Source: Basidiobolus meristosporus CBS 931.73
Taxonomy: Eukaryota; Basidiobolomycota; Basidiobolomycetes; Basidiobolales; Basidiobolaceae
Length of the DNA: 47,660 nt
NCBI GenBank assembly: GCA_002104905.1
Contig: MCFE01000670.1
Coordinates: 1-47,660, forward strand
Reading direction: 5' to 3'
Part shown: positions 1-47,660 of the stretch, piece by piece
How positions within the stretch are numbered: the stretch's first letter is position 1
Layout of the letters: every line of letters begins with the position of its first letter
Notes under the pieces: generated by a model
Told to the model about the DNA's origin: nothing
Database searches by the model: none
What the model saw: only the letters and a program-made list of their open reading frames with translations
Position numbers and translations under genes: made by a program

Positions 1-1140
1 TCCAGGTTGGATGGTGATTTATGCACAAATACCAGTGAGACAACTGTCAGATTATTGCTCTGATACTGTAAGATAGATGACAAATTCAGATTGATGAGAA
101 TCAATGGCCAGCAGGATTTGCTGGTATAGTACTTGTTTAATGAGCATCTATCAAGTGCTGAGGCAAAGGTATGGTCACACATACTTTAAAGTGGCCCTTG
201 CTTCTTAGCTGCTTGTAATGCTTGCCATCAAATATATAGGATATATTTGCGCTTGGTTGATACTGAGTGCAGTACTGTATAGCTTTTCAATATTTGTTGG
301 ACTGCATTAACTTCCTCAGATGAGGTATTACCAAAATATATCTGGAGTGTGAACCATGTTTTCCCTCAATGGTGGTGGATTCCTGACAATTTGGACACAT
401 TGCAATGGTGGCATTTTTGGATGCAAATACCATGCAACTGTTAACACATGCTGGAATCAGGACAGTCTCAGGATCATATGCTGCTAGCCGCATGACAGTT
501 GTCCACTTGTACCATACATATGGTAAGTTGCATCCCGGAATGATCTTGGCAAGGGAGTAGTAATAAATTCTCAAAGTCCCCATTACTGATATTAGTGGAA
601 ACATGCCACTTCTCTAGTCACAACATTACATCATTCAACAGTAGATAGATTACTGGGCTCACTTGGCTCCTTAAAGTATCCTGGCATTTGTTCTAACAGG
701 TGTTGTTTCATTGCATATTGAGATTTGACTGGGCTAATATGTGGTACTGTTGTTAGGGGAGATAGGCTCATAATCCATCAGTGAACCTTCTTTGTCAGAG
801 CTATCACTTGGCATGCCATATTCAGAAGGCTGAGGTTAGCCTAAAGGCATCACAAACTCATCTGACTTGGTTTGCACTAGGTGACAAAGACGGCCAGGTG
901 CCAATATAGAAGCATCAACTGGCTGGCAAGATAATGTTGGTAGAGTAGTGACTGGTGAATGGTCAAATATAACTTGTGTGGCAAAACACTGGCCGTAATC
1001 CTTGTAATACCTCCTATGCTGTCTACATGCTTCATGGCTGAGAGGCTTGCTACAATAACCACATGGTCTTTTTTTTTCTCTTACAATGTTGAGTCAAAGT
1101 AGTCTTGTTCATAGGGCAAACAGTTTGACCTTCAACTACC
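1..1140 (-). pseudogene. TNP2/Transposase_21-like transposase fragment (copy A)
   Basis: Reading leftward, the N-terminal zinc-binding stretch (CGYCSKPLSHEACRQH, 990-1075) is followed by a second Cys pair (IPACVNSCM ... MCPNCQES, about 390-465) and then a helix ending IPHLRKLMQS with YCEAI-like continuation. This is the usual order upstream of the catalytic part of TNP2 transposases of CACTA/Plavaka elements. Beyond about 290 the matching sequence continues to base 1 with frame breaks and lines up with 33700-34010, where the diagnostic ALDGFS ... LNLPP ... SGPK ... LDIYLYPLLDEL signature is intact. The catalytic C-terminal half lies outside the window or is lost. Confidence 0.7.
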
Positions 1141-1334
1141 TAATGCTATTATATTACTTTTTGGTCAATACTCATGGGAATTTAAGACAGTCTTGTATTT
1201 GAGATATTGCACCTACATGAATGTAAGATTCAATGATGACCCACCATAGTAAGTACTATAAATAAAGTTGTGGTGCCACATACATATGAATATGTTACAC
1301 TATTTCCCCTATGGCTTGACTCACTTCAATATAT
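1141..1334. promoter_or_regulatory. Putative bidirectional promoter of the CACTA element
   Basis: This short spacer separates the start regions of the two divergent frames. Closely similar spacers lie at 32800-33057 (copy B), 34630-34768 (copy D) and about 5500-5594 (copy C). All carry a related stretch around acatatacatatGtgtatg-type AT/GT alternation close to the second gene. Conservation among decayed copies and its position imply a shared promoter; no individual box can be assigned with certainty. Confidence 0.35.
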
Positions 1335-4150: not shown

Positions 4151-4548
4151 TTTAACAGAAATAATTCAATTTGTATGCATGAAAAGTAAGAGTAACAAAT
4201 GAGTCAGGAAGTAAGGAGCGCAAAAAAGAGGCAATAGCCAGTCAATGCACACAAATGTAGCAGGTGATAGATTGTCTGGAATCAGAGAGTGAGCAAATTG
4301 GCAGGGAGCCAATCAAAAGCCACTTATACATTGTTGTGATGAAAATATTGACCAAGTTTTTTGTGAAATCTGGGGTGCAATTATTTTTCAACAGTCTCTG
4401 GACAGTGTCCTGACAGAATCAGTACCTCTTAGTCACAGGACTTTAACTTTGCAACAGCCTTTTGACAGGATCATCACAATAATTTTTCATAGTGGATGTA
4501 TTGGTAGTGTTGGCATTTAAATGATATTGAGTGTGGTGGCTTAATGCT

Positions 4549-5545
4549 TCACAGTATTTGACACACGGCACATGCTACTTTTGACAGGGTAATGCTAGAA
4601 CATATCCAGAATATGAGCAATCTTGTCTTCTTGTGGTTGTGGATGACTGAACAGTTGGACACCTTGCAATGGTGGCATTCTTTGTTATGAATGTCATGTA
4701 AATGTTGGTACATGCTTGCAGCAAGAGAGTTTTTGGGGCATATTTTACCATCTGAATGATAGTTGGTTACTTGTACCATGTACATGGTATGTTGCATCTC
4801 TGAATGACTTTGACAAGAAATAGCTGTAAATCTTCAAAGCTCCCATTGTTGCAATTGGTGAAAACATACCACTTCTCTAGCCAGAGCATCTTGTCATTCA
4901 ACAGTAAGTGGACAACTAGGCTTGTATGACTTCATATAGTATCCTTGGCTTTTTTCAACTGTTTTCATATTGTGTATTGAAATTTTGCCAGTCTCATAGA
5001 GGGTATTATGGTCCTGGAAGATAGGCACAGAATCCACAACTGAGCTCTCTTCTTTAGATCTAAAACTGTGTGGGCTATGTTTTGCATGCTGGGGTGGGCC
5101 AAAAGGTTTCATAACCACACCTAATTCAGTTTATGGAAAATATCAGATGTGGATAGTAGTTATTAAAGAAATATAAAGTAGCCAGCAAGATATTGTAGGT
5201 ACAGTGGTGACGGATGGATGCTCATATAAGACTTGTGCAGTATAACAATGGCCATGATCTTTGTAATACTTCCTATGCTGTCTGCATGCCCCATGACTGA
5301 CAGGATTATCTCAATAGCCACAAGGTCTTTTCTTTCTTCTCTCAGGGTGCTGAATGATAGTAGTCATGTCCATGTGGCAAACCTCTTGGCACTAAATAAT
5401 GTAGCAATATTATATCACCTTTTGTCAAGACTCAGGTGGATATGTGACATTCTTTTATTTATAACATTACACCTACATAAATGCAAGCTCAAGTGATGTC
5501 CTACAATAGTAAGCATGCTAAATAAAGCTGTGGCACCACATACAC
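4549..5545 (-). pseudogene. TNP2-like transposase N-terminal fragment (copy C)
   Basis: The zinc-finger region lies near 5240-5345 (reverse strand: tandem Cys and His as in copies A, B and D). A Pro/Ser-rich linker at 4894-5118 is followed by the block equivalent to the Cys-pair region of the other copies around 4640-4700 (ECHHCKVSNC). Frames are split at least three times. No catalytic region is present. Confidence 0.55.
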
Positions 5546-5594
5546 ATAGAAATGTAGCGCTATAAAACCTTTGGTTTAACTCACTACCATATAT

Positions 5595-6110
5595 ATGCCA
5601 CCAATAAGCAAGGTTATCTGGTTCCTAACCAAACAGCAACGCAGACTGGTTCTGAGGAGCTGTTGGACAACATCTTGCTTTAACATTTGCACACTCTCAG
5701 GGAACTATCTTAAAGCCTACAGTGGAGTTTAGGATCAGCATTAGCCACAACAAGAGGTTACTGCACCTCTTTAAGAGTAGTGCTCAAGAAAATGCACTTG
5801 CATATTGTAAGGATGTATTGCAAAGACTGGCAGATGTGGTACTGGACCTTGCAATGCAGGTAAAAGAACATGATATATAGGAGCCAATAGACAAACAATG
5901 GCATAAGCCCATTGGGCTTCTGCTGAAGTCATGGGCAAAGGGCATTCTAGCAGAAACACCAAATGAATAGTGGATGTTAATGCAGCTACTTACTAGATGT
6001 GTGGGTGGACTTAATGATGGTGCTGGGAAAAGGGACCTGAATAGGTCAACAAGATCATTGATTGAATTAAATCCAATTATTGCATGGAAATAAATCAACT
6101 TGTATGCATC
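5595..6110 (+). pseudogene. Second CACTA protein relic (copy C)
   Basis: The N-terminal remnant near 5600-5690 (start-proximal residues like copy A) runs directly into the C-terminal block (5745-6090: the HKRLLHLFKSSAQENAL-like helix, then the Trp-rich tail). The middle two thirds seen in copy A are deleted. In-frame stops include TAG at 5877. The arrangement of the terminal block matches copy B, not copy A. Confidence 0.5.
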
Positions 6111-29486: not shown

Positions 29487-29770
29487 TATATTGTATGAGT
29501 TTTGGAGATATTGGAAACAATTGGGAGAACAGTTGAATATTTTGTAGTACTTCTAAATACTCACCTAGTCAAGTTGCTTGGAGTTTGATGTACAGAGCAT
29601 ACAGAATCTTAACTAAAATACATTTTGAGATTTCTTACAATATTTTCACCACAATATCAGGTACTTATTGCATTAGAAGCATCCAAGTTGTCCAAACAGC
29701 CTCAAACTTTGCAAATATGCTTTTCAGGTCTTCCAGAACAAATTCTACATATGTGTTTTGCCAAGACCTA
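29487..29770. repeat. Two head-to-head copia LTR fragments
   Basis: 29487-29530 matches the reverse-oriented LTR start (gttttggagatattggaaac...), and about 29540-29770 matches the forward LTR (ctcacctag ... aatatcaggtac ... cctcaaactttg). Both are truncated where the CACTA copy B begins at about 29778. An additional LTR-like stretch may start at 29012 (TGTTGTGTGTAACC) but could not be closed. Confidence 0.5.
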
Positions 29771-29777
29771 TAGAATA

Positions 29778-30326
29778 TCAGGCACCACATCTTATATACA
29801 AGTCCCTATACCCTGCATTAACATTAAGCCCAACCCCACGCTCAACAAGTAACTCCATTAAAATCCACCACTCAATAAGTATTTCTGCTCTAATGCTCTG
29901 TTTCCATGACTCTGGTGGGAACCCAATGACTTTATGCCACTGTGCATTCACTGGTTCCCATATGTCCTGGTCTTCAGCCAGCACTGCAAGGTCTAGCACT
30001 TCATCTACCAGTCTTTGCAATGAATCCTTGCAATATTCAAGTGTGTTTTCTTGAGCACTACTCTTGAAGAAGTGCTGCAACCTCTTGGTGTGCCTATTGA
30101 TGTTCCAACATTCCACTGAAGGCATTGTGATAACCTTTTGAGTTCTTGATGCTGTTGCTTTGCCTGTCAGTGGGATCTCAGCTCTGTCAACAATGGAGGA
30201 CATGGAGGCTGTGGTAGACAAGTTGCCTTTGTCTGCAAGCTCATCTACCACACTGGAGTGTAGCTTAACTGGCAGCACTGTGGTGGGGCCACAGTGACAC
30301 CCACTGACAGATGTGCCCATTCCCAT
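29778..30326 (-). pseudogene. C-terminal block of the second CACTA protein (copy B)
   Basis: The longest uninterrupted piece of this protein in the window (182 residues, MGMGTSVSGCHCGP to GYRDLYI). It includes the RHTKRLQHFFKSSAQENT helix, the LQRLVDEVLDLAVLAEDQD segment and a Trp-rich tail (ESWKQS ... EWWILMELLVERGVGLN). It is predicted mostly helical. Sequence matching its flanks lies at 3905-4140 in copy A, where the central 310 bases are missing. Confidence 0.5.
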
Positions 30327-30858
30327 ATTTTCTACTTTCCTATTTCTCTACTACGCTTATTTTAGTGTTATCCCATTGGTCTTATCCAATCAGTACTATC
30401 CCATAAGCTGGCTGACTAAAATACCTGCTTATTCATTGCATGAGTTATCCCTACTTTATGTAAGATCTCTAGACATAAGTGCTTCTATATTAGGCAACTA
30501 CCTGCACTTGGACCTGTAACATATAATTGAGCCATGTCACCATTCCAACCATTTTCATTCCATATATGGTATCCCTATGTTACACAGGTTTCAGAATCCT
30601 AATCCCTGATTGGTTGGATGTGCTGTGCTCTTAGAACCTTCTAACATCTACTTAGAACATTCTTGGCTCATTCTGATGTCATCAAGATTTCTATTGATCT
30701 TTCAAACCACTGGAACACCTTGATTGGTAATCACTTAGCCAGTGAAAAAGGTATGTAAGGGAGGCAAGCCCTCAACAATAAATCATCATCCCTTTTATCA
30801 ACATACTAACTTGTAGATTAGTATGATCACTGCTACCTGCTGCTACCTGAGCTTCCAA

Positions 30859-32791
30859 TCATAGACAACAGGACACTCCCAGGAAACTGTGCTGACAGCC
30901 AACTGACCTTGGAGGCACTACTTGTGAAGAATACTCAGAGTAGGTATCTTTTATTATATTTGATTCTTTCCCAAGTTTGTTCTTGTACAGGCAAAGATAC
31001 TTTTCTGTCTTTGTAACTATTGACCACAGCTGCTTTCTTCTCAAGTACTTGCTGGTGGAGTTTATAGCTGCTTTGACTTTGGAAGCTTTGTTACATAGTC
31101 ATCACAAAGGACACTGAGCCCAGCACATACTTTTGTTAAGACTCCAACCAAGTTGGGGATTGTAGCTCAATAGTTTTCCCTTGACAAGCTTGTGGCTTTA
31201 TTCCCCTTCACATAAGAGTAAAGACAGAACCCAGGTATTCCTAGCAAGCTCTTGCCAGAGGATATCACACCCAGTGAACACCCCACACACATAACACTTG
31301 TGAAGCATTGGACATGTCTCTCCCTTGGACTGATACACCACCACAACACTTCCAACTCTTATGAAAACAATTGTTTTTGTGTTGGTAATTCTTCTTGGCT
31401 ATGGTGGGATTGAGTCTATTCCATGCTTATGTTATTAAATAGCAAGAATTGAAAGTTTTTTCTTTTGCTTCCTTGTCTCAGGCTTTGGTATACATTTTTC
31501 CCTTTACCTTTTCCTTTATCACTGCCAGGTCTTTCACTGCTACCTTGTGTGAGTGCTTCTTGTATCAAACTACATTTTCTCCCTAATAAGTGCTGCTCTG
31601 ATGCATCTGCTTTGGCCTGCTTGTCCCTTGCTGGCATTCTACAGGCAACCTGATGCTTGTTTCCTGTTTGTTTTGAGCTCTCAGCCCAAGTTGTGTCAGG
31701 ATCATAAGGTAATCACTGGTTTTTATCACTGCCAGGCCCTCACAGCTACTTTGACAGAGTCTTCTTGGGTGCAACCACACTTTCTTCATGATAAATGTTG
31801 TGCAAGTGCATCTGTGTCTACCTGCTTGTCCCTTATTGGTGCTCTTCCAGCTACCTGATGTCTCTTTGATGCTTATTTGGAGCTTTTGCCCAGCTTATAA
31901 CAAGCTCTTGAAGAGGCCACTGGTTTATAGCCTTTGCACCCTTGTTCTTCTGCCTTTGATAGTTTCTGCAACTCTTGGGATACCTTCATAGCACACCAAT
32001 GCTGGCCCAAAGTGTGTTTGCTTGTTGGAATCCAGAATAATGCTCATGCAACAATTCAGGTGCATTCTGCTCAGCCTTGGGTTCCTGATGGTCCCATGGT
32101 ATGCCAGCCTTAAGATGTAGGCATGCAAGACTTCTAACAGCCTCTTGAAGATTAACTCACTCTTCATCAGTGCACTCAACAGCTTCACAGATCTTCAATG
32201 TCTTCTGATTTTAGGCTTGGGTATAAACACCACAGCTTCTCCCTCCTATGCCATGGTAGGTTTTTCTGTGGCCTTCCTCTTTGGGCACTGTTGCTGTGCT
32301 TCAAAGACTGTACAGTGTTCCTCTGCTGTTATGTTGGCAAATGGCTCAGTTGTTGGCTGCAACACTGAGCTACCTGAGTTCATTCTTTGGAGCATAGATA
32401 CTGCTTTCTCTACCTGTGAAATTGATTGATCTACACATATTATCTGCTTGTCCTGTTACTGGAGTGTTTCCCAATTTCTCTGGGCCATTGCATCTATACT
32501 ATCAGCCACTGCACTTGATTACCTCATTAATGCTTTGGTATGAACTGACAACAAACTTGCTAATATGGGTAGTGGTGATATTATGACAGCATCTTGCTGG
32601 TCTTCAGCTGAAGGTACTGCTTTTGCTACATTCCCATCTGCCTTAGCATTGTGGTCAGCTTGTGGCTCTGCAGAGATTCTCAATTGCCTATTTGACTGTG
32701 AGCCTGAGGAGTCCACATTAATACCTTGAGTGGGCACACTGTCAACATAGGCTTTTTTGGTTGCAGCCCTGCTTGTTGCATTGAATGTCAA
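30859..32791 (-). pseudogene. Second CACTA protein, N-terminal and middle parts (copy B)
   Basis: Blocks from right to left: hydrophilic N-terminus (32791-32519; SQSNRQLRISAEPQADHNA), the KLLSALMKSELIFKRLLEV block (32188-31925), a Lys/Gln-rich linker (31637-31416) and the Cys pair CVGCSLGV (31355-31167). Several stops and frame changes separate them. The same order is seen on the plus strand from 1400 in copy A. Confidence 0.5.
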
Positions 32792-33057
32792 AGCAAGCTG
32801 TTATCCAACTGTTCTTCTGCTGCTGTCAGCAGTGGGGCTTGGTTGGGAACCAGAAAACTTTGCTATATTTTTAGGCAGCATTTATATGGAAGTGAGTCAA
32901 ACCAAAGGGGAAATGGTGTTACATATAGGTGTATATGCAGTGCCATAACTTTACTTATAATGCTTATTATGACCGGTGATCATTGAATCTTACATTCATG
33001 TAGGTGCAATGTCTCATATACAATACTGTCTTAAACTCACAAAAGTATTGACAAAAG

Positions 33058-34042
33058 ATGATACAGCAGTATTATGTTGTTGAGTGTCAAACTGCTTGTC
33101 CCATGGACAAGACTACACTGATTCAACACCATAAGAGAAAAGAAAAAAGACCATGCGGCAATTGTAACAAGCCTCTCAGCCTTCTGAATATGGCATGCAG
33201 AGTGATAGCTCTGAAGAAGAAGGCTTACTGATGGACTGAGAGCCTATCTTCCCTGACAACAGTACATTGCATGAGCCATGCAAAATCCCAATATGCAATG
33301 AGCCAACACCTGTGGAAAAAATGCCATGGATACTTCATGGAGTCAGTGAGCCCAGCCATCCATTCACTGGTGAATGAAGTAATGTTGTGGCTAAAAAAGT
33401 GGTGCCTTTCCACTAATATCACTCATGGAGGCTTTGAGGATTTAATACTACCTCTTGCCAAAGTTATCCCAGAATGTTACTTACCATGTATAAAGTATAA
33501 ATGAACAACCATCATGTGGCAAGCAATATTTAACCCAGAGACCATCCTGATACCAGCATGTGTTAACAGTTGCATGGCATTCACATCAGAAAATTCCAAC
33601 ACTGCAAGGTGTCCATCCTATCAGGAATCCATCACCATTGGGGGAAAACATTGCTCACACTGCAGACATATTCCAGTAATACCCCATCTAAAGTAGCTTA
33701 TGCAGTCCAACAAATATTGTGAAGCTATAAAGTACAGCACTCAGTGGCAATCAAGTGCTAATATATCCAATATATTTGATTGCAAACATTACAAGCAGCT
33801 AAGAAGCAAGGGCTACTCTGAAGGCATGTATGACTATGCCTTTGCCTTGGCACTTGATGGATTCTCATCAAACAAGCATTCTACCAGCAAATCCTGCTGG
33901 CTAGCAATTCTCATCAATCTGAATCTGCCACCTATCTTATGGTATCAGAGTAGAAATCTTATGGTAGTCTCACTGATATCTGGGCCTAAGTTACTGCCCA
34001 ACCTGGATATCTACCTGTATCCATTGCTTGATGAACTTAGAT
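33058..34042 (+). pseudogene. TNP2/Transposase_21 transposase relic (copy B), with the diagnostic core
   Basis: Begins MIQQYYVVECQTACPMDKTT; zinc stretch CGNCNKPLS at about 33155; second Cys pair IPACVNSCMAF ... CPSYQES (33550-33625; the second Cys of the pair lost); then from 33700 the family signature in one frame: YDYAFALALDGFS, LNLPPILW, VVSLISGPK and LDIYLYPLLDEL. This is the conserved block of En/Spm-Plavaka (CACTA) transposases. It stops abruptly at 34042, where inverted sequence of copy D's second gene begins. The rest of the RNase H-like catalytic region is absent. Confidence 0.8.
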
Positions 34043-34628
34043 GGCTGCTGTTACATTGGGAAATAATGCAATTCTTGGCTGTGACATTAAGCTACTTGAG
34101 CTGCTTTCTTGCAGCAAAGATACTGCTCTCTCTACCTAGGATATTGCTTGCTCTACATATATTTTCTGCTCATTCTATTTCTGGACTATTTCCTGATCTT
34201 TCTGGGCCATTGCATCTATCCTATTGGCCACTGTACCTAATTATCTCATTGATTCTTTGGTGCAAGCTGACAGCATACTTGCTAAAACAGGTAGTGGTGA
34301 TGTTATGACAGCTACTTGCTGGTCTTCAACAAAGGGTGCTGCATTTGCTAAAATTCTTGTCTGCCTGAGCATTATGGTCAGCTTGCAGCTCTGCTGATAT
34401 TCTCATTTGCCTACTTGACTGTGAGCCTGAGGAGTCTGCATTATTACCTTCAGTGGGAACACTGAAAACATGATCTTCATTGTTTGTAGCCCTGCTTGTT
34501 GCATAGAATGTCAAAGAAAGCTGTTGTCCAACTGTTCTTCTGCTGCTGTCAGCAGTGGGGTTTGGTTGGGAACCAGATGACTTTGCATTATTTTTTAGTG
34601 GCATATATATGGAGGTAAGTCCAGCCAA
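34043..34628 (-). pseudogene. Second CACTA protein, N-terminal part (copy D)
   Basis: Starts MPLKNNAKSSGSQPNPTADS on the minus strand (the 34628 frame extends a little upstream) and runs to about 34326 in frame, then degraded to 34043. It aligns with 1335-1800 of copy A. The junction with copy B's transposase at 34042 fuses the two into one spurious plus-strand frame (33700-34308). Confidence 0.5.
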
Positions 34629-34768
34629 AGAAGAAATAGTGCCACATATACATGTGTATGTGGTACCACAACTTCATTTACAATGCTTACTGTGGCAGGT
34701 CATCATTGAATCTTACATTCATTTAGGTGCAAAGTATCAAATACAAGACTGTCCTAAACTCACTTAAG

Positions 34769-35320
34769 TATGGACAAAAAGCAATATAATAGCATTATGC
34801 TGTTGAGTGTCAAACTGCTTGCCCCAAGGAGAAGAACACTTTGATTCAATGCTGTAAGAGAAGAGAAAAAAGACCATATGACTATTGTAGCAAGCCACTC
34901 AGCCTTAAAGTACACAGGCAGCATAGCAAGTATCACAAGGATCATAGACATTGTTTTGCCACACAAGTCATACTTGACCATTCATCAGACACTACTGTAT
35001 ATTATTGTGGAAAATTGTTTAGCATGTGAACAGCAAATGGGATGATGGACAACTTACCTATATCTTAAGTCTATCTGCTTGGAACATGACAAGTACAGCA
35101 GTCACAAGAAGAATCTGTTCAAACTTGGTGGTACTACTAGATTTCTGGAACATCCAAGCTCGACCAATTGGTGATACTGGTTGCTCACTAAAGAATGTGA
35201 CTCCCCCCACTGAGCAGCTCACATGTCTTCCTAGTGGGTCTGCTGAGATGGCTGCACAACCTAAAAGGTCACCATCAAAGCTCCAGAAGAGAGTGCTCCC
35301 ATCCAGTGTGAAGCTGTAAA
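34769..35320 (+). pseudogene. TNP2-like transposase N-terminus (copy D)
   Basis: The zinc stretch YCSKPLSLKVHRQHSKYHKD (about 34885-34945) and the following FATQVILDHSSDTT correspond to copies A and B. Then TCLPSGSAEM-like sequence degrades by 35320. Frames are interrupted. No catalytic part. Confidence 0.5.
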
Positions 35321-40188: not shown

Positions 40189-41402
40189 CTTTTGCTTGCA
40201 AACCAGAAATAAACCATTTGTGAATACATGAAATAAAGCGCTTCTATCAATATTACACATCTGTTCTGCTCTAGTTACTATGGAAATGTGCTGTATTGAT
40301 CTGAAATTTGCCTTATTGTTGGGCATTCATTAACATTTGGGTCCTACTTTGTGTTCAAACCATTGACTTTGCTTCTTCTGAGTCCTGTGGATTATTCTAA
40401 AGCATGATGGTATTCCTACCTGGCTCTTTGCGCAGTAAATGCTACTAGGTATTTGAAGAGCTAATCAGCTGCTTGATAACCTGAGGAACATTGTGTAGAT
40501 TTACAATGATAGTATATGAGTACCTATTAAGATGTTATAGTTGTTAGACTTGTTCTGTTGGATGGGACAACATTGAGCCATGAGTGCTAAATAGCACCAC
40601 AGTGTACCATAGAGGCACAGCAGACCTATACTTGGCCACACGCTGTGAAATATAGTACTATATCTTCATGCAAAGTAGCCTATGTGTTTCACTCACCATG
40701 TTGGGGAAAATCCATTTTTAGACCTTCTTTTGGGATCAATGTTGGTCATGATGCGTAAAAGCACAGAAGGACTGAAGACATGTTATATCCAAGAGAAAAT
40801 TTGAATTAAACTTTTGGAAGGTTGAACTAAACAAAAGGGACAACTAAGTGCAGCATCTTAGAATTGTCAGAGATTGGCAAAATATTAGCAGAGAGATTCT
40901 GGTCTAATATGGGTGTGTATACAGCTGAGCTGGGCTATAAAGGCAACAGAGTTTGTTTGCTATACAGGCTAGGCTTGGTGTTCTTGAGAATGCTAGATAT
41001 GCTAGGCTTGGGTGGAAACTAGAATGAAATTGCTGAATTCTTAATTTTGCTGAGGCACAATCTTAAATTTGTTGAGACACACACTAAACCAAAAGGTTCA
41101 GTAAGCTTTATTTATATTTTTCTGGTCAAGTTGAATTAGTACGCGCCAAGAGACTGGACTAATTGAAATCTGTTGGGGTGTTTGTAGGTGCATAAGATAA
41201 ATGAGAAATTGCATCATTAATCAGCTGATGTCTTGGCAACTGCTAAGTGGATAAATAGATCTCAGGTGACTAATCACTTGGAAAGGCTTAGCAGATCAGT
41301 TGAGGATGTAATGACCACATGAAAATTGATCAGGTGTGACCACTAAAAATAGATTCTGAGAAGTGATAAGATAAACAATAACTGGAATTAGTTATGCTTG
41401 AG
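40189..41402. other. AT-rich degraded sequence, no gene recognised
   Basis: Few open frames and no motif. CpG-poor like the mobile elements around it. A TATAAATAAA-like stretch occurs near 41108-41125 on the minus strand. Likely old repeats. Confidence 0.35.
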
Positions 41403-42107
41403 TTAGGGAATATCAGTTACGGTACTGGATTTTCTAACCAAGTAGAATAGGCTAAGTTTCAAATGTTGATGCACAACATCACTTACTCCCAGGAGAGGAG
41501 TTTTCTGATATCTTCTGGGTTCCCCTGCAGCTCCAATACTGATTGATGATGGCAACATCATCAATGTTGGTATAAGGTTCCCAGGTGTTGTGTTTGGCAT
41601 CATAACCGTTCCACTTGACAAATAATGGCAATTTTGTTCTTTTCCATCATGGTCAACAATAGCTACAACTTCATAGGATTCTGAAGTAACTGGGTCTGGA
41701 GATATAAGCTTCCATGAAGATTCAGGCACAATAGGAGATATCCTGGCAGGAGGAGGAGTATCCAAGGCAGTAACAGAGGCAATTCTTGTTGGTGAAGCAG
41801 CAGCAGGGGAGGCAAGCCTGATCAGAAACTGGGCAGGAGAGAGTGCTTGAGGAGAGGGAGTCTTCAGCATGCCAAGCATGTCTTCCATCAGAGTGATACC
41901 AATATTTCTGGTGCATTTGCAGAGAAAAGTAAGCTTCCTGAGTCTGCCAGCTCTTCCATTCCTTCTGATAGTTCCTTTGTTTCCACAGTTGGGGCAAGAA
42001 ATCTTCTTGACAGACTTGTCAGAGCAATCAAGAACCATCCTTTCAGGTGTAGTGGGCTCCTGTTGAGGTTTTGGTGGCATATCCAGAGTTTCAGCTTCAA
42101 ATTTCAA
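41403..42107 (-). CDS. Zinc-ribbon protein of a retroelement-like unit (possible LINE ORF1)
   Basis: 234 residues, uninterrupted. After an acidic/Pro-rich start it has CPNCGNKGTIRRNGRAG followed by LTFLCKC, a CxxC...CxC zinc ribbon of the kind found in transposase N-termini and some LINE ORF1 proteins. The rest is Pro/Ser/Ala-rich. The upstream side (right) ends about 200 bases away at a TTAGGG-type tract (42306), and the stop codon itself lies in a CCCTAA hexamer (41403-41408 on the plus strand reads TTAGGG). Its place and orientation in the array suggest it is the 5' part of a related element. No reverse transcriptase follows. A host gene cannot be excluded. Confidence 0.5.
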   Translation of the reverse strand: MKFEAETLDMPPKPQQEPTTPERMVLDCSDKSVKKISCPNCGNKGTIRRNGRAGRLRKLTFLCKCTRNIGITLMEDMLGMLKTPSPQALSPAQFLIRLASPAAASPTRIASVTALDTPPPARISPIVPESSWKLISPDPVTSESYEVVAIVDHDGKEQNCHYLSSGTVMMPNTTPGNLIPTLMMLPSSISIGAAGEPRRYQKTPLLGVSDVVHQHLKLSLFYLVRKSSTVTDIP

Positions 42108-42305
42108 TTTTTGAGATTTTTGGGTGATTTTTGATGGACGGGATCAAAATTAGGGCTAGGGTTGCGCGCTGTGACTGCTTTTTACAATTGCAAGGTCAGA
42201 ACCTAGGAAAAAATAAAAATAGTTAGTAAAGGTGATTTAATGGATGGATGGATGGATTTGGAGTCAGATTCAATCAAAAAATCAAATTGTTGACTAATTT
42301 AAAGA

Positions 42306-42316
42306 GGGTTAGGGGG
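42306..42316. repeat. Telomere-type tract 1
   Basis: GGGTTAGGGGG on the plus strand, directly left of a LINE-type 3' terminal hairpin (42324-42337). Confidence 0.6.
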
Positions 42317-42523
42317 AGGAAAGTCACCAAGTGGTGAAATCTTTATTTACTTATGACAAGTATCTAAAGAAGCCAAGTTAATCTGAAGTAATTCCTAGAA
42401 AGCTAGGCCTGAGAGATATCTTCCTGGTAAGCCAGGTCTGAGAGTTGAGAAGCTGAGTGGTACTATATCTCCTATTTAGCTAGGTCTGAGAGAGGTTTCC
42501 TGGAAAGCCAGGCCTGGGTTGGA
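42317..42523 (-). mobile_element. 5'-truncated LINE-type unit E1 (3' end only)
   Basis: About 207 bases. On the minus strand it ends with AATAAAGATTTCACC, the hairpin TCACCA-AG-TGGTGA, then a C-run and TAACCC. It carries four short palindromes (see 42394-42512). It is nearly identical over 200 bases to the 3' part of the next unit (42534-42914). No coding sequence. Confidence 0.65.
42394..42512. repeat. Array of four short hairpins (unit E1)
   Basis: CCTAG-AAAG-CTAGG (42394), CCTGG-TAAG-CCAGG (42423), CCTAT-TTAG-CTAGG (42471) and CCTGG-AAAG-CCAGG (42499). Each is a 14-base palindrome with 4-base loop followed by [C/T]CTG. The units vary in stem sequence but keep pairing, except the third. 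Confidence 0.75.
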
Positions 42524-42533
42524 GTTAGGGGGG
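42524..42533. repeat. Telomere-type tract 2
   Basis: GTTAGGGGGG between units E1 and E2, directly left of the 3' hairpin of E2 (42541-42554). Confidence 0.6.
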
Positions 42534-42914
42534 AGGAAAGTCACCAAGTGGTGAAATCTTTATTTACTTATGACAAGTATCCAAAGAAGCCATGTTAATC
42601 TGATGTAATTCCTAGAAAGCTAGGTCTGAGAGATATCTTCCTGGTAAGCCAGGTCTGAGAGTTGTGAAGCTGAGTGGTACTCTATTTCCTACTTGGCTAG
42701 GTCTGAGAGAGGTTTCCTGGAAAGCCAGGCCTGAGAAGTGAGAATCTGAATAGATCTGAGCTAAGTTATACTGGTTTGCGGTAGCTGAATTGTGGCCGGA
42801 ATGGCCAGTAGACTGGGGAACTGAGAGGAATTTCTGGGCAATCACTGGCCAAATTTACTAGGCAAATCTGGCCAATTAGCATTTCAAGGATTTGAGCCAA
42901 TCAGAGCCTTTACT
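42534..42914 (-). mobile_element. 5'-truncated LINE-type unit E2
   Basis: About 380 bases, same 3' end as E1 with the same four hairpins (42611-42624, 42640-42653, 42688-42701, 42716-42729). It is longer on its 5' side. A minus-strand frame at 42612-42845 has no motif. It is bounded on the right by the tract at 42915-42936. Confidence 0.65.
42611..42729. repeat. Array of four short hairpins (unit E2)
   Basis: Same order and spacing as 42394-42512: CCTAG-AAAG-CTAGG, CCTGG-TAAG-CCAGG, a degenerate third (CCTACTTGGCTAGG), CCTGG-AAAG-CCAGG. Confidence 0.75.
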
Positions 42915-42936
42915 TTAGGGTTTAGGGTTAGGGGGG
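42915..42936. repeat. Telomere-type tract 3
   Basis: Two TTTAGGG units followed by TTAGGGGGG, between E2 and the 3' end of LINE copy 1. Confidence 0.7.
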
Positions 42937-42942
42937 AGACAG

Positions 42943-42956
42943 TCACCAACAGGTGA
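42943..42956 (-). other. 3'-terminal hairpin of LINE copy 1
   Basis: TCACC-aaca-GGTGA, with AATAAAG immediately 5' on the element strand and CTGTCTCCCCCC then TAACCC on its 3' side. The same module is at 46708-46721 (copy 2), 42324-42337 (E1) and 42541-42554 (E2). Confidence 0.8.
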
Positions 42957-42990
42957 AATCTTTATTTCAGTTGAAACAAAGAAGCCAGCG

Positions 42991-45760
42991 CTACTGTTGT
43001 AGCTTTGATACAAGAGTGTATAGCTGAGGGGAATTTGTAGGTAAGTTAATGAGAAGTGATGATAGTTCTTCAGTGCTCAAGACACTGTTCAGTGGGAAGG
43101 GGGGTAGCAAGAGAGGTAAGAATGACTTGTGAACAACATTAATGAGGGGAATGTGATAAGGATTGATATTCATCATAAAGGGAGTGTGCTGCTGCAGATA
43201 TTGCTGCCAAAGGTCTGTCAAGTACTTCAGGTAGGCCAGCTTGGGTTTTTCTGACTGCAGAATATAGTGAGCAAACTTCTTGACTTCAGGATCTCCAAGT
43301 ATAGTTCTCCAGCAGGAGTCCAGGTGTTGTGTGGTGTGTTCTCTTCCAGGCCTTAATCAGTGGGTTGTTGCAGTTGTGAAGTCTGAGGTATAATCTGGTT
43401 CTAAGGTAGAGAAGTCCGATCTTATAGGGCATAAACCCAAAAGCACCAAGAATAGCATGTCTGTAGGGGCATTCAGGCAAATGAGGCACCAAGGAGGTAA
43501 TGCACCATACTGCAAACTTGTCAAGCTTAGTGCAGTCTCTAGAAGTAAGAGAGAGAAGTGGTAAGCCAAATTCCAGGACAGGGAAGACAAACTGCTTGAG
43601 TAGAAGGAGGCAGCTGGGAGCTGAAGTTGTAGGAGGAGTAACAGCCAGTAGCTTGTGGAGTGCCTGTCTTGCCAGGATAATTCTCTTCTTCAGGTGTGCT
43701 CCAGAGTCTAGTCCAGTAGGAAGGAAAGGAAAGCCAAGATATGTAGCAGAAACCTGAGCAGGTAGAGTGGAGTTCTCCAAGTTGATGGGAGAGCCCAAAG
43801 GTACTGTCTTTGCAATGGAAAGCTGGAGATTATTCTTCTGCAGATGCTGGTGGATGGTCTGGGAGTCTTGTTGCACATTGGAGGAGGATATTCTGATGTC
43901 ATCAGCAAAGAGAGTAACCAGGCAGTCAGCTGAGAGTCTTGGGAAATCATTCAGGAAGATGGCAAACAGTATAGGACCAAGCACAGAGCCTTGAACCACT
44001 CCATTAGGAACTGAGAACACAGCTGATTGCTCACTTGGGTGCAGAATTCTTGCTTGTGGATCCAGAAACAGAGACCTGACAAGGAGGGTGAGAGAGGTAC
44101 TGGAGAAGCATTGCAACTTGGACCAAAGCAGATTTCTGTCAACTGAATCAAAGGCCTTAGTAATATCAAACAGAACAGAGGGATACTTGCACTGGAGAGA
44201 GTGATCTTGGCTAAGTATGACTGCATATTCCAAGGAGAGGCCAGGAACAAAGCCAAACTGTGCAGGATGAAACTTGAGAGAGTCAGAGTAGAGCTCCTGA
44301 GCAAGCAGAAGCTCAAACACCTTTCTGCAGGTGGGCAGCAGAGATATTGGCCTGTAGGAGCTAGGATCCAGGTGCTTTCCTTTACCCTTGTACAGTGGCA
44401 GAACATTTGCAAAGGACCATTCCTCAGGAGTAGAAAGCTGGGCTGAGCATTGCTGAAACAGTGGAAGCAGAAGTGCAGACATGGCCTTGGTACTAGTCTT
44501 CAGAAGCTCATAGGAGATTGTGTCCACACCTGGAGCAGTAGAGTTGGGAAGCCTCTTGAGCACATTATGGATTCTCCTTTGATCAAGTGCAAGTGGGATG
44601 GGCAGAGTCTTGAAGTCAGGATGAAAGCCAGGAGTTGAGTACTGCTTTGTAGAGAAGAAGATGTTAGCCAGCTGTTCTGTTGAAGGTAACTTCCTGGAAG
44701 AGGGCCTCATTGCCCTGTAGAGTCTTGATACTGTTCTTGTTATAGAGTTGGAAGATTGCAGAGGCAAGGAACTCATAATATGATCCCAGAGCTGAGTATG
44801 CAGAGTGTGGTGAATTGCCTTGGAGTGGTGTATTGCTGTCAGGAGGAGTTTCTCTGTTTTTGGGTTAGGGAAGCTCAGGTAGCTTTGTTGCAGGGCTGAA
44901 ACAATGGATTCCCATTTTCTTGAGGTAACAGCAGTAGTCTTGCATGGCAGTGAGAGGGAGGCAGACACCAGAATCAGATGCTTCACAAAGAGCCAGGCAA
45001 AGTTGAGATCATCTGGCAGAGAAAGTAGCAAACTGGCAAGCTTCAAGTAGTTCCCAAAGTCTTTCTTCTGATTCTTGGTAGCTTTGTGGGTGAGCACAGT
45101 AAGTTTTGGCAGCTTCTTCTTCACAACTGGTTGCATAGAAAGGGACCAGGCTGGGTGGTCAGAGGCTCTCAAGGATCCTAGCTCAGCTCCAGAGAATTGC
45201 TTAACTTCATTCACAAAGTAGAGGGCAGCAGCAGAAGGGCAGATCCAGTCAACACATCTTTTCTCAGATTGAGCACCTAGTGCTAGCAGGTGGCTTTCTC
45301 TCAGGAAGTTCAGTAGGAATGTAGACCTTGGCTTCATTCTTGCAGTCAGAGTAGTCTTGTTCTCAGGATGGGGAATGTTGAGATCTCCAAGCAAGATAAC
45401 AGGTGTTGATATAGATTGTTGGTATTGCTGAACCTTCTGGCATATAACTTGCACTTCCTGAAGGGCTAGACTTGGAGGCAGATAGCAGAGCACCAGACTG
45501 ATAGTTGGCAACTGGAGAGCAGCACAGTAAGGGGAGTAAAGAGGAACACAGAGCTGAGGAGTATTGATGGTAGAAGAGATGAAGCAGATAGAGGAGGTAT
45601 TCTTTGTTCTAGGAGTAGAAAAGCAATATAGATTAGTCAAAAGTATAGAGGGTAGCTGGACATCAATCAAACACAGGAGGGAAAATCTTGAAAGAAGTCT
45701 CTCTAGAGTTGGTCTTGATGGCTGTATGCTGTTGCAGTTAAGCAACAGAACTTCAGGTAG
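42991..45760 (-). pseudogene. LINE ORF2: APE endonuclease and reverse transcriptase, frameshifted
   Basis: Begins right after the ORF1 stop with LPEVLLLNCNSIQPSRP; no ATG precedes the endonuclease. Endonuclease motifs: LLGDLN (about 45378-45395), VDWICPS, ASDHPAW. Reverse transcriptase: TAPGVDTISYELLK, SYRPISLLPTCRKVFE, FDITKAFDSVDR (about 44147-44170 and on), NGVVQGSVLGPILFA, and the catalytic FADD (43898-43909). A C-terminal domain follows. An extra T at 43319, absent in copy 2 (47083 region), shifts the frame and cuts the protein at 43286; the true tail continues 43318-42991. The usual endonuclease Glu (QE) is not obvious near the start. Otherwise intact, so inactivation is recent. Confidence 0.9.
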
Positions 45761-45763
45761 TCA
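45758..45763 (-). promoter_or_regulatory. Candidate UGA readthrough site between LINE ORF1 and ORF2
   Basis: TGA followed by CTA, with both flanking frames in the same phase. UGA-CUA is a known leaky stop context in eukaryotes. ORF2 has no ATG before its endonuclease domain, so readthrough would make an ORF1-ORF2 fusion. Inference; needs other copies to exclude a mutated sense codon. Confidence 0.5.
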
Positions 45764-46672
45764 GGCAGAGGTTGTAGCTTCTTCAGAGGCAGCATTAACA
45801 ATGTGACCTGCAGAGTCCCAGAGCTCTTCAAATGGTGCATCACTTAAGTCAGCAAGGAGGGAAATGGCATGGTTCTTGAGGAAGTATGCCACATCATAGG
45901 AGGGGGCTTGTCTCTTGATGGCAGCAAAGAAAGACAGAATGGCAACATGGGCTGGAGGCTTGTTGAACAGTAGAGAGTCAGAGGATTCAGATTCTTCAGG
46001 CACTATCTTGAAGTCAGTTTTCAGCCAGTTAAGGTTCTTCTCCACAAAGGCAACAAATGGGTCAGCAATGTTTTGGTCTAGGATAACCTCCAGAATCTTC
46101 CCTTTTCTCCAGGCCAGGTTGACAATTCTTGAGAGCTGAATATTGCATGCCTTGAGTGCTTTCCTGATGTTGGAAATGGGGGTCCAGGGAACTTGCTTCA
46201 AGTACACCACAGTCCAGGTAGAAGCTGGTGGTAGGTTTGCTGGGGGCTTGTAAGTCCTTCTGTGTTGCAATGGAGCTGCAGTAGTCAGATTGGAGTCCAC
46301 ATTCTCAGTAGAAGGTTTTCTTGATGTGTCTTGCTGAATAGTACTGGAGCTGGATGTGCTGATAATTCTTGCTAGAACCTTGCCTGCATAAGTCTGAGGT
46401 ATAGCTGAGGTGACTGTAGAGGTGGTGGCAGCTGGTGCAGGTGGAGAGGCAGAGACTGAAGCAGGAACTGAGGTCACCTGGGAGAAGGCAGTAGAAGCAG
46501 GTTTTCTGGGAGGAACAGAGTTCACTATCCAGTTGTTCTGTAAAACACTGGAGTAGCTTTTCTGTGGAACAGGATCTTGCTCTTGAACAGGAACAGAAGC
46601 AGGAGGCTGGGGCTGAGCAGTAGTGGTAAGGCAGTGGCTCAGGAGTTGAGGATGGCAGTAGGCGATGGTCAT
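45761..46672 (-). CDS. LINE ORF1 (probably 5'-truncated)
   Basis: About 303 residues from the first ATG inside the element (46672). The N-terminal half is Pro/Ser/Thr-rich with QKSYSSVLQNN. From about residue 150 there is an RRM-like fold signature (WTVVYLKQVPWTPISNIRKA ... RIVNLAWRKGKILEVIL), usual for ORF1 proteins that bind the element RNA. Ends SEEATTSA then TGA at 45763-45761. The frame continues without shift into ORF2. Only about 14 bases separate the ATG from the telomere-type tract, so a longer N-terminus was probably lost by 5' truncation. No zinc ribbon is present, unlike the unit at 41403-42107. Confidence 0.75.
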   Translation of the reverse strand: MTIAYCHPQLLSHCLTTTAQPQPPASVPVQEQDPVPQKSYSSVLQNNWIVNSVPPRKPASTAFSQVTSVPASVSASPPAPAATTSTVTSAIPQTYAGKVLARIISTSSSSTIQQDTSRKPSTENVDSNLTTAAPLQHRRTYKPPANLPPASTWTVVYLKQVPWTPISNIRKALKACNIQLSRIVNLAWRKGKILEVILDQNIADPFVAFVEKNLNWLKTDFKIVPEESESSDSLLFNKPPAHVAILSFFAAIKRQAPSYDVAYFLKNHAISLLADLSDAPFEELWDSAGHIVNAASEEATTSA

Positions 46673-46686
46673 GAGTGCATGGTCAG

Positions 46687-46700
46687 TTAGGGTTAGGGGG
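46687..46700. repeat. Telomere-type tract 4
   Basis: TTAGGGTTAGGGGG between the 5' end of LINE copy 1 and the 3' end of copy 2. Confidence 0.75.
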
Positions 46701-47660
46701 GAGACAGTCACCAACAGGTGAAATCTTTATTTCAGTTGAAACAAAGAAGCCAGCGCTACTGTTGTAGCTTTGATACAAGAGTGTGTAGCTGAGGGGAATT
46801 TGTAGGTAAGTTAATAAGAAGTGATGATAGTTCTTCAGTGCTCAAGACACTGTTCAGTGGGAAGGGGGGTAGCAAGAGAGGTAAGAATGACTTGTGAACA
46901 ACATTAATGAGGGGAATGTGATAAGGATTGATATTCATCATAAAGGGAGTGTGCTGCTGCAGATATTGCTGCCAAAGGTCTGTCAAGTACTTCAGGTAGG
47001 CCAGCTTGGGTTTTTCTGACTGCAGAATAAAGTGAGCAAACTTCTTGACTTCAGGATCTCCAAGTATAGTTCTCCAGCAGGAGCCAGGTGTTGTGTGGTG
47101 TGTTCTCTTCCAGGCCTTAATCAGTGGGTTGTTGCAGTTGTGAAGTCTGAGGTATAATCTGGTTCTAAGGTAGAGAAGTCTGATCTTATAGGGCATAAAC
47201 CCAAAAGCACCAAGAATAGCATGTCTGTAGGGGCATTCAGGCAAATGAGGCACCAAGGAGGTAATGCACCATACTGCAAACTTGTCAAGCTTAGTGCAGT
47301 CTCTAGAAGTAAGAGAGAGAAGTGGTAAGCCAAATTCCAGGACAGGGAAGACAAACTGCTTGAGTAGAAGAAGGCAGCTGGGAGCTGAAGTTGTAGGAGG
47401 AGTAACAGCCAGTAGCTTGTGGAGTGCCTGTCTTGCCAGGATAATTCTCTTCTTCAGGTGTGCTCCAGAGTCTAGTCCAGTAGGAAGGAAAGGAAAGCCA
47501 AGATATGTAGCAGAAACCTGAGCAGGTAGAGTGGAGTTCTCCAAGTTGATGGGAGAGCCCAAAGGTACTGTCTTTGCAATGGAAAGCTGGAGATTATTCT
47601 TCTGCAGATACTGGTGGATGGTCTGGGAGTCTTGTTGCACATTGGAGGAGGATATTCTGA
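46699..47660 (-). mobile_element. LINE copy 2 (cut by the window edge)
   Basis: Starts with the same 3' C-run, hairpin (46708-46721) and AATAAA as copy 1 and continues into ORF2. Very few differences from copy 1 over 960 bases, including a CpG in copy 1 (43416 region, tccgat) that is TpG here (tctgat). The element continues beyond the window. Confidence 0.9.
46756..47660 (-). CDS. LINE ORF2 C-terminal part, intact frame (partial)
   Basis: Runs from the window edge, just past the FADD motif, to the stop at 46756 without interruption: LQLSIAKTVPLGSPINLEN, a thumb/connection region, then the C-terminal domain with FAHFILQSEKPKLAYL and VSKLQQ at the end. It shows that copy 1's break at 43319 is a private mutation. 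The remainder of ORF2 and ORF1 lie outside the window, so this copy could be functional. Confidence 0.85.
   Translation of the reverse strand, partial: RISSSNVQQDSQTIHQYLQKNNLQLSIAKTVPLGSPINLENSTLPAQVSATYLGFPFLPTGLDSGAHLKKRIILARQALHKLLAVTPPTTSAPSCLLLLKQFVFPVLEFGLPLLSLTSRDCTKLDKFAVWCITSLVPHLPECPYRHAILGAFGFMPYKIRLLYLRTRLYLRLHNCNNPLIKAWKRTHHTTPGSCWRTILGDPEVKKFAHFILQSEKPKLAYLKYLTDLWQQYLQQHTPFMMNINPYHIPLINVVHKSFLPLLLPPFPLNSVLSTEELSSLLINLPTNSPQLHTLVSKLQQ

What the first reader, a model, noticed from the sequence alone, without database searches (positions are those of the whole stretch)
41403..47660. Head-to-tail array of APE-type LINE units punctuated by TTAGGG tracts: a candidate telomere-targeted retrotransposon system
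Seen: units E1, E2, LINE copy 1 and LINE copy 2 (and probably the zinc-ribbon unit) all lie on the minus strand, with TTAGGG/TTTAGGG tracts at 42306, 42524, 42915 and 46687 between them. Each 3' end runs into the C-rich telomere strand. The G-rich strand points right, so element 5' ends face the presumed chromosome end, as with Drosophila HeT-A and other end-extending elements. Known: telomere-specific LINEs are SART/TRAS (insects) and MoTeR (a fungus, but with a restriction-enzyme-like endonuclease). An APE-type member in a fungus with an array like this would be new or little described. Inference: insertion by target-primed reverse transcription at telomeric repeats or at open chromosome ends.
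Basis: partly seen in the sequence, partly recalled or inferred. Interest (0 to 1): 0.9.

Follow-up and report, generated by a model that had tools for sequence, protein, structure and literature searches.

The report
Fungal chromosome ends built from retrotransposons
The ends of this apparently fungal genome's chromosomes are stacks of jumping genes of several related kinds, pointing the same way and capped by ordinary short telomere repeats, much like fruit-fly telomeres but in an organism that seems to keep a telomerase gene.

Summary
The array is real and genome-wide. The window is a whole contig of an 89 Mb, 1,311-contig assembly. LINE-A (copies 1 and 2) lies almost only at contig ends with its 5' end outward: of 83 listed exact 3' junctions on contigs over 40 kb, 80 lie within 15 kb of the outward end and none within 15 kb of the other end (chance about 11). 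A control repeat is mostly interior and two-sided. In 15 of 19 sampled telomere-bearing contig ends the outermost unit is LINE-A or a relative. Between units the telomeric tract is only 4-35 bp (median 11, 64 junctions), against about 220 bp from tract start to contig end. This fits addition to nearly bare ends rather than insertion inside a long telomere.

Corrections: the zinc-ribbon unit is the 5' part of LINE-A; E1 and E2 are truncated SINE-like elements. The endonuclease is APE-like by motif only. A telomerase-like gene was detected.

Retrotransposition, reads at the ends, and the clade were not tested.

The parts
40781..41478 (-). LTR of an LTR retrotransposon (neighbour, not part of the system)
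   Evidence: 84% over 700 bp to a solo-LTR-like insert inside a LINE-A copy in L011
41479..41717 (-). Chromodomain-like 3' coding end of that LTR element, fused at 41718 to LINE-A
   Evidence: chromodomain read by eye, not searched; junction
41718..42307 (-). 5' 590 bp of a LINE-A element: 5' UTR and N-terminus of ORF1 with zinc ribbon (CPNC...CKC); its 3' part is missing
   Evidence: 97% to positions 3970-4562 of the complete LINE-A in L020
42308..42312 (+). telomeric junction (GTTAG) running into a G-run
42313..42516 (-). SINE copy (E1), 5'-truncated, with the shared hairpin 3' tail
   Evidence: 98.5% to SINE ref 9-212; fold
42517..42529 (+). junction with one TTAGG unit
42530..42916 (-). 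SINE copy (E2), 5'-truncated
   Evidence: 97% to SINE ref 9-396
42914..42933 (+). telomeric tract TTTAGGGTTTAGGGTTAGGG
42934..46686 (-). LINE-A copy 1, 5'-truncated; ORF2 frame shorter than in other copies (broken near its C-terminus); last 48 bp at the 5' end of unknown origin
   Evidence: 99.4% to LINE-A ref 1-3704 over 42934-46638; other copies have the longer open frame
42925..42999 (-). 3' RNA end of LINE-A: AAUAAA, hairpins, C-run, UAACCC tail
   Evidence: fold z -3.6 against shuffles; same layout in other tail families
43286..45745 (-). LINE-A ORF2 (APE-like endonuclease, reverse transcriptase), part of the 922-codon frame seen elsewhere
   Evidence: RVT_1 E 2.1e-25; Exo_endo_phos_2 E 3.7e-4, below cut-off; motifs located
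45758..45763 (-). in-frame TGA CTA between ORF1 and ORF2
   Evidence: identical in 15 of 15 copies found by an exact downstream anchor; also in the sister LINE-2
45761..46638 (-). C-terminal part of LINE-A ORF1
   Evidence: complete 502-aa ORF1 in L020
46687..46698 (+). telomeric tract (TTAGGG)2
46699..47660 (-). LINE-A copy 2, 3' 962 bp, cut by the contig end
   Evidence: 99.8% to LINE-A ref; window = whole contig C947

Best explanation
A consortium of non-LTR retrotransposons extends chromosome ends. LINE-A and its sister LINE-2 encode ORF1 and, by inferred UGA-CUA readthrough, an APE-like endonuclease and a reverse transcriptase. ORF1-only half-LINEs (families B and C) and a SINE carry the same 3' RNA layout and are inferred to borrow that reverse transcriptase. 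Inferred mechanism: the RNA 3' tail (C-run plus UAACCC) pairs with the G-rich 3' end of a chromosome that has lost almost all its telomere. That end primes reverse transcription outward, usually incompletely, giving 5' truncation. The new end is then re-capped by telomerase or receives another element. Shown in the assembly: location, orientation, 3' tails, short tracts between units, TTAGGG tracts directly outside truncated units near contig ends, 99.2-100% identity among 19 copies, a telomerase-like gene. Inferred: priming at the end without a nick, trans-mobilisation, readthrough, present activity.
For: Outward position at contig ends: LINE-A 80 of 83, all with true contig lengths; SINE 70 of 71 (36 with true lengths); half-LINE B 29 of 30 (20 with true lengths); none of these within 15 kb of the inward end. 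Control repeat: of 29, 5 outward, 4 inward, 20 interior. Outermost unit belongs to the consortium in 15 of 19 sampled ends (partly by eye). Tract between units 4-35 bp, median 11 (64 junctions), against a median of 223 bp from tract start to contig end (20 sampled). Two terminal stubs, a G-run plus 5-7 element nucleotides, followed by TTAGGG repeats, in L014 and L029. Four of 64 junctions without TA before the G-run. 54 distinct flanks among 60 junctions. Hairpin-rich, C-rich 3' end in several tail families. Telomerase_RBD matches at C880.
Against: No retrotransposition or read-level check of chromosome ends was possible. Repeats tend to break assemblies, so contig-end position alone is weak; orientation and terminal TTAGGG tracts carry the argument. 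Several contigs end inside LINE-A without a telomere, the window among them. Endonuclease motifs are conserved between LINE-A and LINE-2, which suggests that nicking matters and argues against purely nick-free priming. Some internal arrays exist (C558, C726), and internal tracts of at least 30 bp (C337; C595). Of the two telomerase matches, one contains an in-frame TAG, and I found no long open frame around them, so the gene's integrity is open. 4 of 19 sampled ends carry other sequences.
Confidence: 0.7

Rival explanations
1. Site-specific target-primed insertion: the endonuclease nicks inside telomeric repeats, as described for SART/TRAS; short tracts arise later by loss or recombination.
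For: APE-like motifs kept in two families about 43% identical over 531 residues; TTAGGG-type sequence at 60 of 64 3' junctions.
Against: Tract lengths between units (4-35 bp) do not look like a random cut of a ~220-bp telomere (KS p 2e-53, treating junctions as independent); junctions with only a G-run exist.
Confidence: 0.25
2. Arrays were spread mainly by recombination between ends (break-induced copying at interstitial telomere tracts), as described for MoTeR arrays in telomerase knock-outs, not by serial retrotransposition.
For: PMC8381367 describes such amplification (passages); subtelomeres here share units.
Against: 54 distinct flanks among 60 junctions and many different 5' truncation points; outermost copies truncated and capped individually.
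Confidence: 0.12
3. End-to-end template jumping: one priming event lets the reverse transcriptase copy several RNAs in a row, so short tracts are copied from RNA 3' tails.
For: SINE 5' ends directly followed by the next unit's 3' tail in many copies; very short tracts.
Against: Many inner units are 5'-truncated at varied points; some tracts hold several repeats.
Confidence: 0.15
4. Assembly artefact: a dispersed repeat that only seems terminal because assemblies break in repeats.
For: Several contigs end inside LINE-A without a telomere, including the window.
Against: Orientation is one-sided (0 of 83 near the inward end); contigs end in or near TTAGGG tracts; another dispersed repeat is mostly interior and two-sided.
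Confidence: 0.03

Closest known systems
HeT-A / TART / TAHRE (Drosophila)
   Same: Head-to-tail arrays at chromosome ends (abstract of PMC3828246 in listing); a Gag-only partner, HeT-A, beside RT-bearing elements (PMC5009743 passage); 5' ends outward (recalled)
MoTeR, FoTeR, Cnl1 (fungi, CRE clade)
   Same: Telomeric LINE arrays in fungi, telomere repeats at the 3' end, truncated copies (passages)
   Different: FoTeR and MoTeR1 carry a restriction-enzyme-like endonuclease C-terminal to RT in one ORF (PMC12857005 passages); here an APE-like domain N-terminal to RT, two ORFs, no such motif found
SART / TRAS (insects)
   Same: Two-ORF LINEs tied to telomeric repeats (listings; APE type recalled)
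   Different: Those insert into telomeric repeats (PMC10088271 passages); here tracts are 4-35 bp and no poly(A) was seen at the 67 junctions. SART1 couples its ORFs by overlapping stop-restart (PMC5972666 passage)
Zepp (Chlorella)
   Same: LINE accumulated in telomeric regions (PMC10088271 passages)
   Different: Green alga; further details of Zepp recalled only, no side-by-side test here
Athena/Coprina Penelope-like elements
   Same: Telomeric; priming at G-rich 3' ends proposed (recalled; title seen in a reference list)
   Different: Those lack an endonuclease and have another RT type (recalled in part); here RT matches RVT_1 and LINE-1 ORF2p

Membership tests
LINE (non-LTR retrotransposon) | LINE-type reverse transcriptase | tested here: met
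   RVT_1 E 2.1e-25; LINE-1 ORF2p E 5e-13
LINE (non-LTR retrotransposon) | 5'-truncated copies sharing one 3' end, no flanking LTRs | tested here: met
   39 LINE-A copies with intact 3' end, reach 105-4562 of 4562 (some short ones are cut by contig or region ends or by insertions)
APE-type LINE | Exonuclease/endonuclease/phosphatase domain N-terminal to RT with N, E, DxN, D, SDH motifs (motif set recalled) | tested here: inconclusive
   Exo_endo_phos_2 E 3.7e-4 to 2.3e-3 and Exo_endo_phos E 0.011, all below cut-off; motifs LNCNS, GDLN, CVDW, SDH in order, but LIDV where the Glu motif is expected; sister LINE-2 has LNCNS, LIDV, GDIN, CVDW, SDH. Fold model unusable
CRE clade (MoTeR/FoTeR/Cnl1) | REL endonuclease with CCHC C-terminal to RT | tested here: not met
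   no CCHC pattern anywhere in ORF2; only one R/KxD in the C-terminal 240 aa
R1 clade SART/TRAS | RT phylogeny within R1 | not tested
   no reference set; protein database switched off
R1 clade SART/TRAS | insertion within telomeric repeat arrays | tested here: inconclusive
   TTAGGG-type sequence at the 3' side, but between-unit tracts 4-35 bp against ~220 bp from tract start to contig end
HeT-A/TART-like (functional analogy) | head-to-tail, 5' outward, at chromosome ends | tested here: met
   contig ends taken as chromosome ends where a TTAGGG tract is present
HeT-A/TART-like (functional analogy) | ORF1(Gag)-only element present | tested here: met
   families B and C: ORF1 then the shared 3' tail, no ORF2 between them in the copies read
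HeT-A/TART-like (functional analogy) | Gag-only element uses another element's RT | not testable with these tools
   inferred from the shared 3' tail
HeT-A/TART-like (functional analogy) | telomerase absent | tested here: not met
   Telomerase_RBD, two adjacent stretches over cut-off, one with an in-frame TAG
SINE | tRNA-like Pol III promoter and LINE-like 3' tail | tested here: inconclusive
   tail shared; A-box-like TAGCCTTGTGG and B-box-like GGTTCAAATCC about 43 nt apart, read by eye (consensus recalled); Rfam gives no tRNA hit
Penelope-like elements | PLE reverse transcriptase; telomeric forms without endonuclease | tested here: not met
   best structural-database matches of the RT are LINE-1 ORF2p; APE-like motifs N-terminal to RT. 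No PLE model was compared

The most novel reading that the evidence does not exclude
A telomerase-bearing fungus in which most chromosome ends are renewed by a three-tier consortium: autonomous APE-like LINEs expressed by UGA-CUA readthrough, HeT-A-like ORF1-only half-LINEs, and a SINE. All are recognised by one 3' RNA structure whose C-run/UAACCC tail primes on nearly bare G-strand ends. This would be an independent origin of a Drosophila-style retrotransposon telomere, still coupled to telomerase.
Probability: 0.55. Interest if true: 0.9.

Novelty: new variant of a known kind. Interest (0 to 1): 0.82.

Why it matters
Retrotransposon-built chromosome ends are known from few lineages. The fungal telomeric LINEs met in my searches are MoTeR, FoTeR and Cnl1, a group with REL-type endonucleases. 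This genome adds an APE-like LINE family, a Gag-only partner and a SINE sharing one 3' RNA end, together with a telomerase-like gene. It offers a state between telomerase telomeres and Drosophila-type telomeres in which the coupling of the two can be tested. The conserved UGA-CUA between ORF1 and ORF2 would be an unusual way for a LINE to make its polymerase: the reviews seen here in passages mention stop-restart for SART1, a separate start codon for TART and 2A-like StopGo in some non-LTR elements, and no readthrough in LINEs in the passages shown.

Tried and rejected
Separate zinc-ribbon element: rejected, it is the 5' part of LINE-A. E units as mere LINE remnants: rejected, complete copies are ~525 bp with their own head. 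REL endonuclease: no motif found. tRNA cloverleaf in Rfam: none found. Structure of the endonuclease: one-sequence AlphaFold model with mean pLDDT 42.9, so no fold search was made. Preference of tract starts for C (64 C, 6 A among the 70 [AC]-preceded starts, counted by eye) was considered as a trace of the telomerase template; between units it is 11 C against 12 A, so no conclusion. Clade assignment by a tree was not possible for lack of reference proteins. A genome-wide count of terminal stubs did not complete. The host name is not established: Basidiobolus meristosporus CBS 931.73 is only a guess from a recalled assembly size; PMC7466969 (passages) gave no size to check. Passages of PMC4700185 gave nothing used here.
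Full report
Context. The window is the whole of contig C947 in an unnamed assembly of 89.0 Mb and 1,311 contigs. The right end of the window is therefore the contig end. The host looks fungal from tricalbin-like and MUG190-like SMP domains (that these are fungal is recalled); no tool named it.

Observation. The units described are present on the minus strand, with telomere-like tracts between them. LINE copy 1 spans 42934-46686; copy 2 starts at 46699 and runs off the contig. They are 99% identical over the two 300-bp stretches compared. A DNA search with the 3' 470 bp listed 41 places, 40 of 733 candidates being scored.

Where copies lie. Twenty regions around those places were fetched with contig lengths, then two more. 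Contig numbers turned out to be the alphabetical sort of size-ranked names: no order violation among 127 known lengths. The exact junction GTTAGGGGGG plus element 3' end occurs 160 times forward and 8 times reverse, with 0 in the reversed control. Of the 100 places listed, 83 lie on contigs over 40 kb. With the true lengths of all their contigs, 80 are within 15 kb of the end to which the 5' end points, 0 within 15 kb of the other end; median distance 3.8 kb, chance 10.6. The three exceptions point outward too, at 18.2 kb (C1), 21.8 and 24.7 kb (C473). An earlier script had printed 81 with interpolated lengths. In the DNA search 30 of 32 are outward near an end; the exceptions are C726 and C558. 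SINE heads: 70 of 71 (100 listed of 220; 36 of the 71 with true lengths; the exception is at 17.9 kb). Half-LINE B: 29 of 30 (20 with true lengths; exception C558). A control repeat from window 2873-3509 gives 5 outward, 4 inward and 20 interior of 29, where chance gives 3.9 per side. Assembly breaks at repeats would not give this one-sided orientation.

What caps the ends. A pattern for tract starts preceded by A or C has 70 places. Twenty of these were fetched with 900 bp of inner flank. One (C337, L039) is not terminal, since the contig goes on for 814 bp with a SINE head in it. In the other 19 the tract start lies 141-297 bp from the contig end; only the first ~40 bp of each tract were fetched. 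The outermost unit, assigned and partly by eye, is LINE-A in 5 (L032, L034, L045, L049, L050), SINE in 1 (L041), half-LINE B in 4 (L031, L042, L044, L047), half-LINE C in 1 (L036), LINE-2 in 3 (L037, L043, L048) and a further zinc-ribbon ORF1 in 1 (L046). That is 15 of 19, read as 5' end outward. The other four look copia-like (L033), gypsy-like (L038) or unassigned (L035, L040), by eye. The sample is limited to tract starts preceded by A or C.

Junctions. In W and L009-L030 a motif search found 67 3' ends, 64 with a stricter pattern. The telomere-like tract on the inner side is 4-35 bp, median 11. Tract starts lie a median of 223 bp from the contig end over all 20 sampled. The G-run is preceded by TA in 60 of 64 and by TTA in 51 of 64. 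Among the 60, 54 have distinct flanks, so most additions look independent. In L014 and L029 the terminal SINE is followed by a G-run with 5-7 more nucleotides of an element 3' end and then telomere repeats. These look like additions broken off almost at once and re-capped. LINE-A copies end at many different 5' points (39 copies, reach 105-4562 of 4562), although the shortest include some cut by a contig or region end.

Anatomy of LINE-A. The complete element is about 4.56 kb. ORF1 has 502 codons: zinc ribbon CPNC...CKC, probable coiled coil, C-terminal region shared with relatives. A single TGA followed by CTA separates it from ORF2 (922 codons) in the same frame. TGACTA is identical in 15 of 15 copies found by an exact downstream anchor. 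In LINE-2, whose ORF2 is about 43% identical over 531 residues, TCTGCCTGACTA is kept exactly, in frame, in both loci read (L017, L043), while the surrounding protein differs. The first Met of LINE-A ORF2 is residue 142, beyond the GDLN motif at 125, so a start at AUG would lose the N-terminal endonuclease motifs; in LINE-2 the first Met is residue 59, before GDIN at 129 but after LNCNS and LIDV. UGA readthrough contexts are the subject of PMC4207609 and PMC4359377 (listing and abstract starts); that UGA CUA is the motif is recalled. Readthrough here is inferred. ORF2 has RVT_1 (E 2.1e-25) and resembles LINE-1 ORF2p in the RT. The N-terminal domain reaches Exo_endo_phos_2 and Exo_endo_phos only below their cut-offs. 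Motifs LNCNS, GDLN, CVDW and SDH are in order, with Asp (LIDV) where I recall a Glu; LINE-2 has the same. Nineteen copies are 99.2-100% identical over the 3' 900 bp, which suggests recent activity. Of six copies translated, two had both frames open and two more an open ORF2; the window's copy 1 has a shortened ORF2.

Half-LINEs. Families B and C have one ORF related to the ORF1 C-terminal region (B: 35% over 162 residues, E 4e-22) followed directly by a short 3' UTR and the shared tail, with no RT between. The ~101-bp repeat at the 5' side of B is found 1 to 13 times per fetched locus (five loci; L053 holds two copies of B). The arrangement resembles HeT-A beside TART.

SINE. Complete copies are ~525 bp with an A-box-like and a B-box-like motif near the 5' end and the LINE-like tail. 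Rfam found no tRNA.

Shared 3' end. The RNA ends of the two SINE copies of the window fold into two hairpins before an unpaired C-run and UAA tail; the LINE-A end does so too, within a larger fold in one version (z -3.6, -2.4, -2.7). The second stem UCACC/GGUGA is constant with varied loops, but the search pattern demanded it. In the first, the inner pair is C-G in LINE-A, G-C in B and A-U in C, by eye; no pair counting was run, and a few rows fold otherwise. An AAUAAA lies in the first hairpin of most.

Telomerase. Two adjacent stretches over the Telomerase_RBD cut-off lie at C880, while 14 control genomes give none. One contains an in-frame TAG, perhaps an intron, and no long open frame was found around them, so a working gene is likely but not shown.

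Mechanism. The 5'-outward order means that cDNA continues the G-rich strand, so the chromosome 3' end is the primer. If elements entered a ~220-bp telomere at random points, long tracts would remain between units; none of 64 reaches 50 bp. The simplest reading is addition to ends that have lost almost all repeats, primed by the C-rich RNA tail, followed by telomerase capping. Conserved endonuclease motifs remain unexplained by this reading and keep the site-specific-nick model alive.

Literature. Ten searches of the held library were made. Telomeric LINEs named in the rows and passages seen are SART/TRAS, GilM/GilT, Zepp, MoTeR1, Tx1-1_ACar, HeT-A/TART/TAHRE, Cnl1 and FoTeRs. None of the rows or passages shown describes an APE-type telomeric LINE with Gag-only partners in a fungus; the listings were capped, and subscription papers and Repbase were not searched.

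True contig lengths replaced interpolated ones for LINE-A (the count of 80 of 83 stands); the telomerase statement was weakened, and the confidence of the best explanation was lowered from 0.72 to 0.70 for that reason.

Noticed in passing
window 41718: LINE-A 5' part fused to the 3' half of an LTR retrotransposon (chromodomain-like by eye), not at an LTR edge: a chimeric junction, perhaps a healed break.
   Followed up: partly
window 46639-46686: 48 bp at the 5' end of copy 1 do not align to the other mapped LINE-A copies: filler of unknown origin before the next telomeric tract.
   Followed up: no
L019 (C726:52000-61999): Two arrays in opposite orientation with facing 3' ends inside a contig: chromosome-end fusion or misassembly.
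   Followed up: no
L021 (C558 near 97.5 kb): Internal array of half-LINE B and LINE-A far from contig ends: possibly an internalised end.
   Followed up: partly
70 tract starts: Of tracts preceded by A or C, 64 follow C and 6 follow A, which may reflect the telomerase template.
   Followed up: partly
C424 (312,558 bp): SINE heads point outward at both ends of this contig (148 and 676; 311568 and 312317), so it may be a nearly whole chromosome.
   Followed up: no
L011:333-1029: Solo-LTR-like insert in a LINE-A copy; LTR elements also invade the arrays.
   Followed up: partly
L057 (C351): About 13 tandem 101-bp repeats at the 5' side of a half-LINE, possibly promoter monomers.
   Followed up: partly
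L033, L038: Telomere repeats directly on copia-like and gypsy-like sequence (by eye): ends without LINEs, probably healed breaks.
   Followed up: no
window 1-6000 and 29700-35000: Long diverged inverted repeats with a tnp2-type transposase domain (33700-34308).
   Followed up: no
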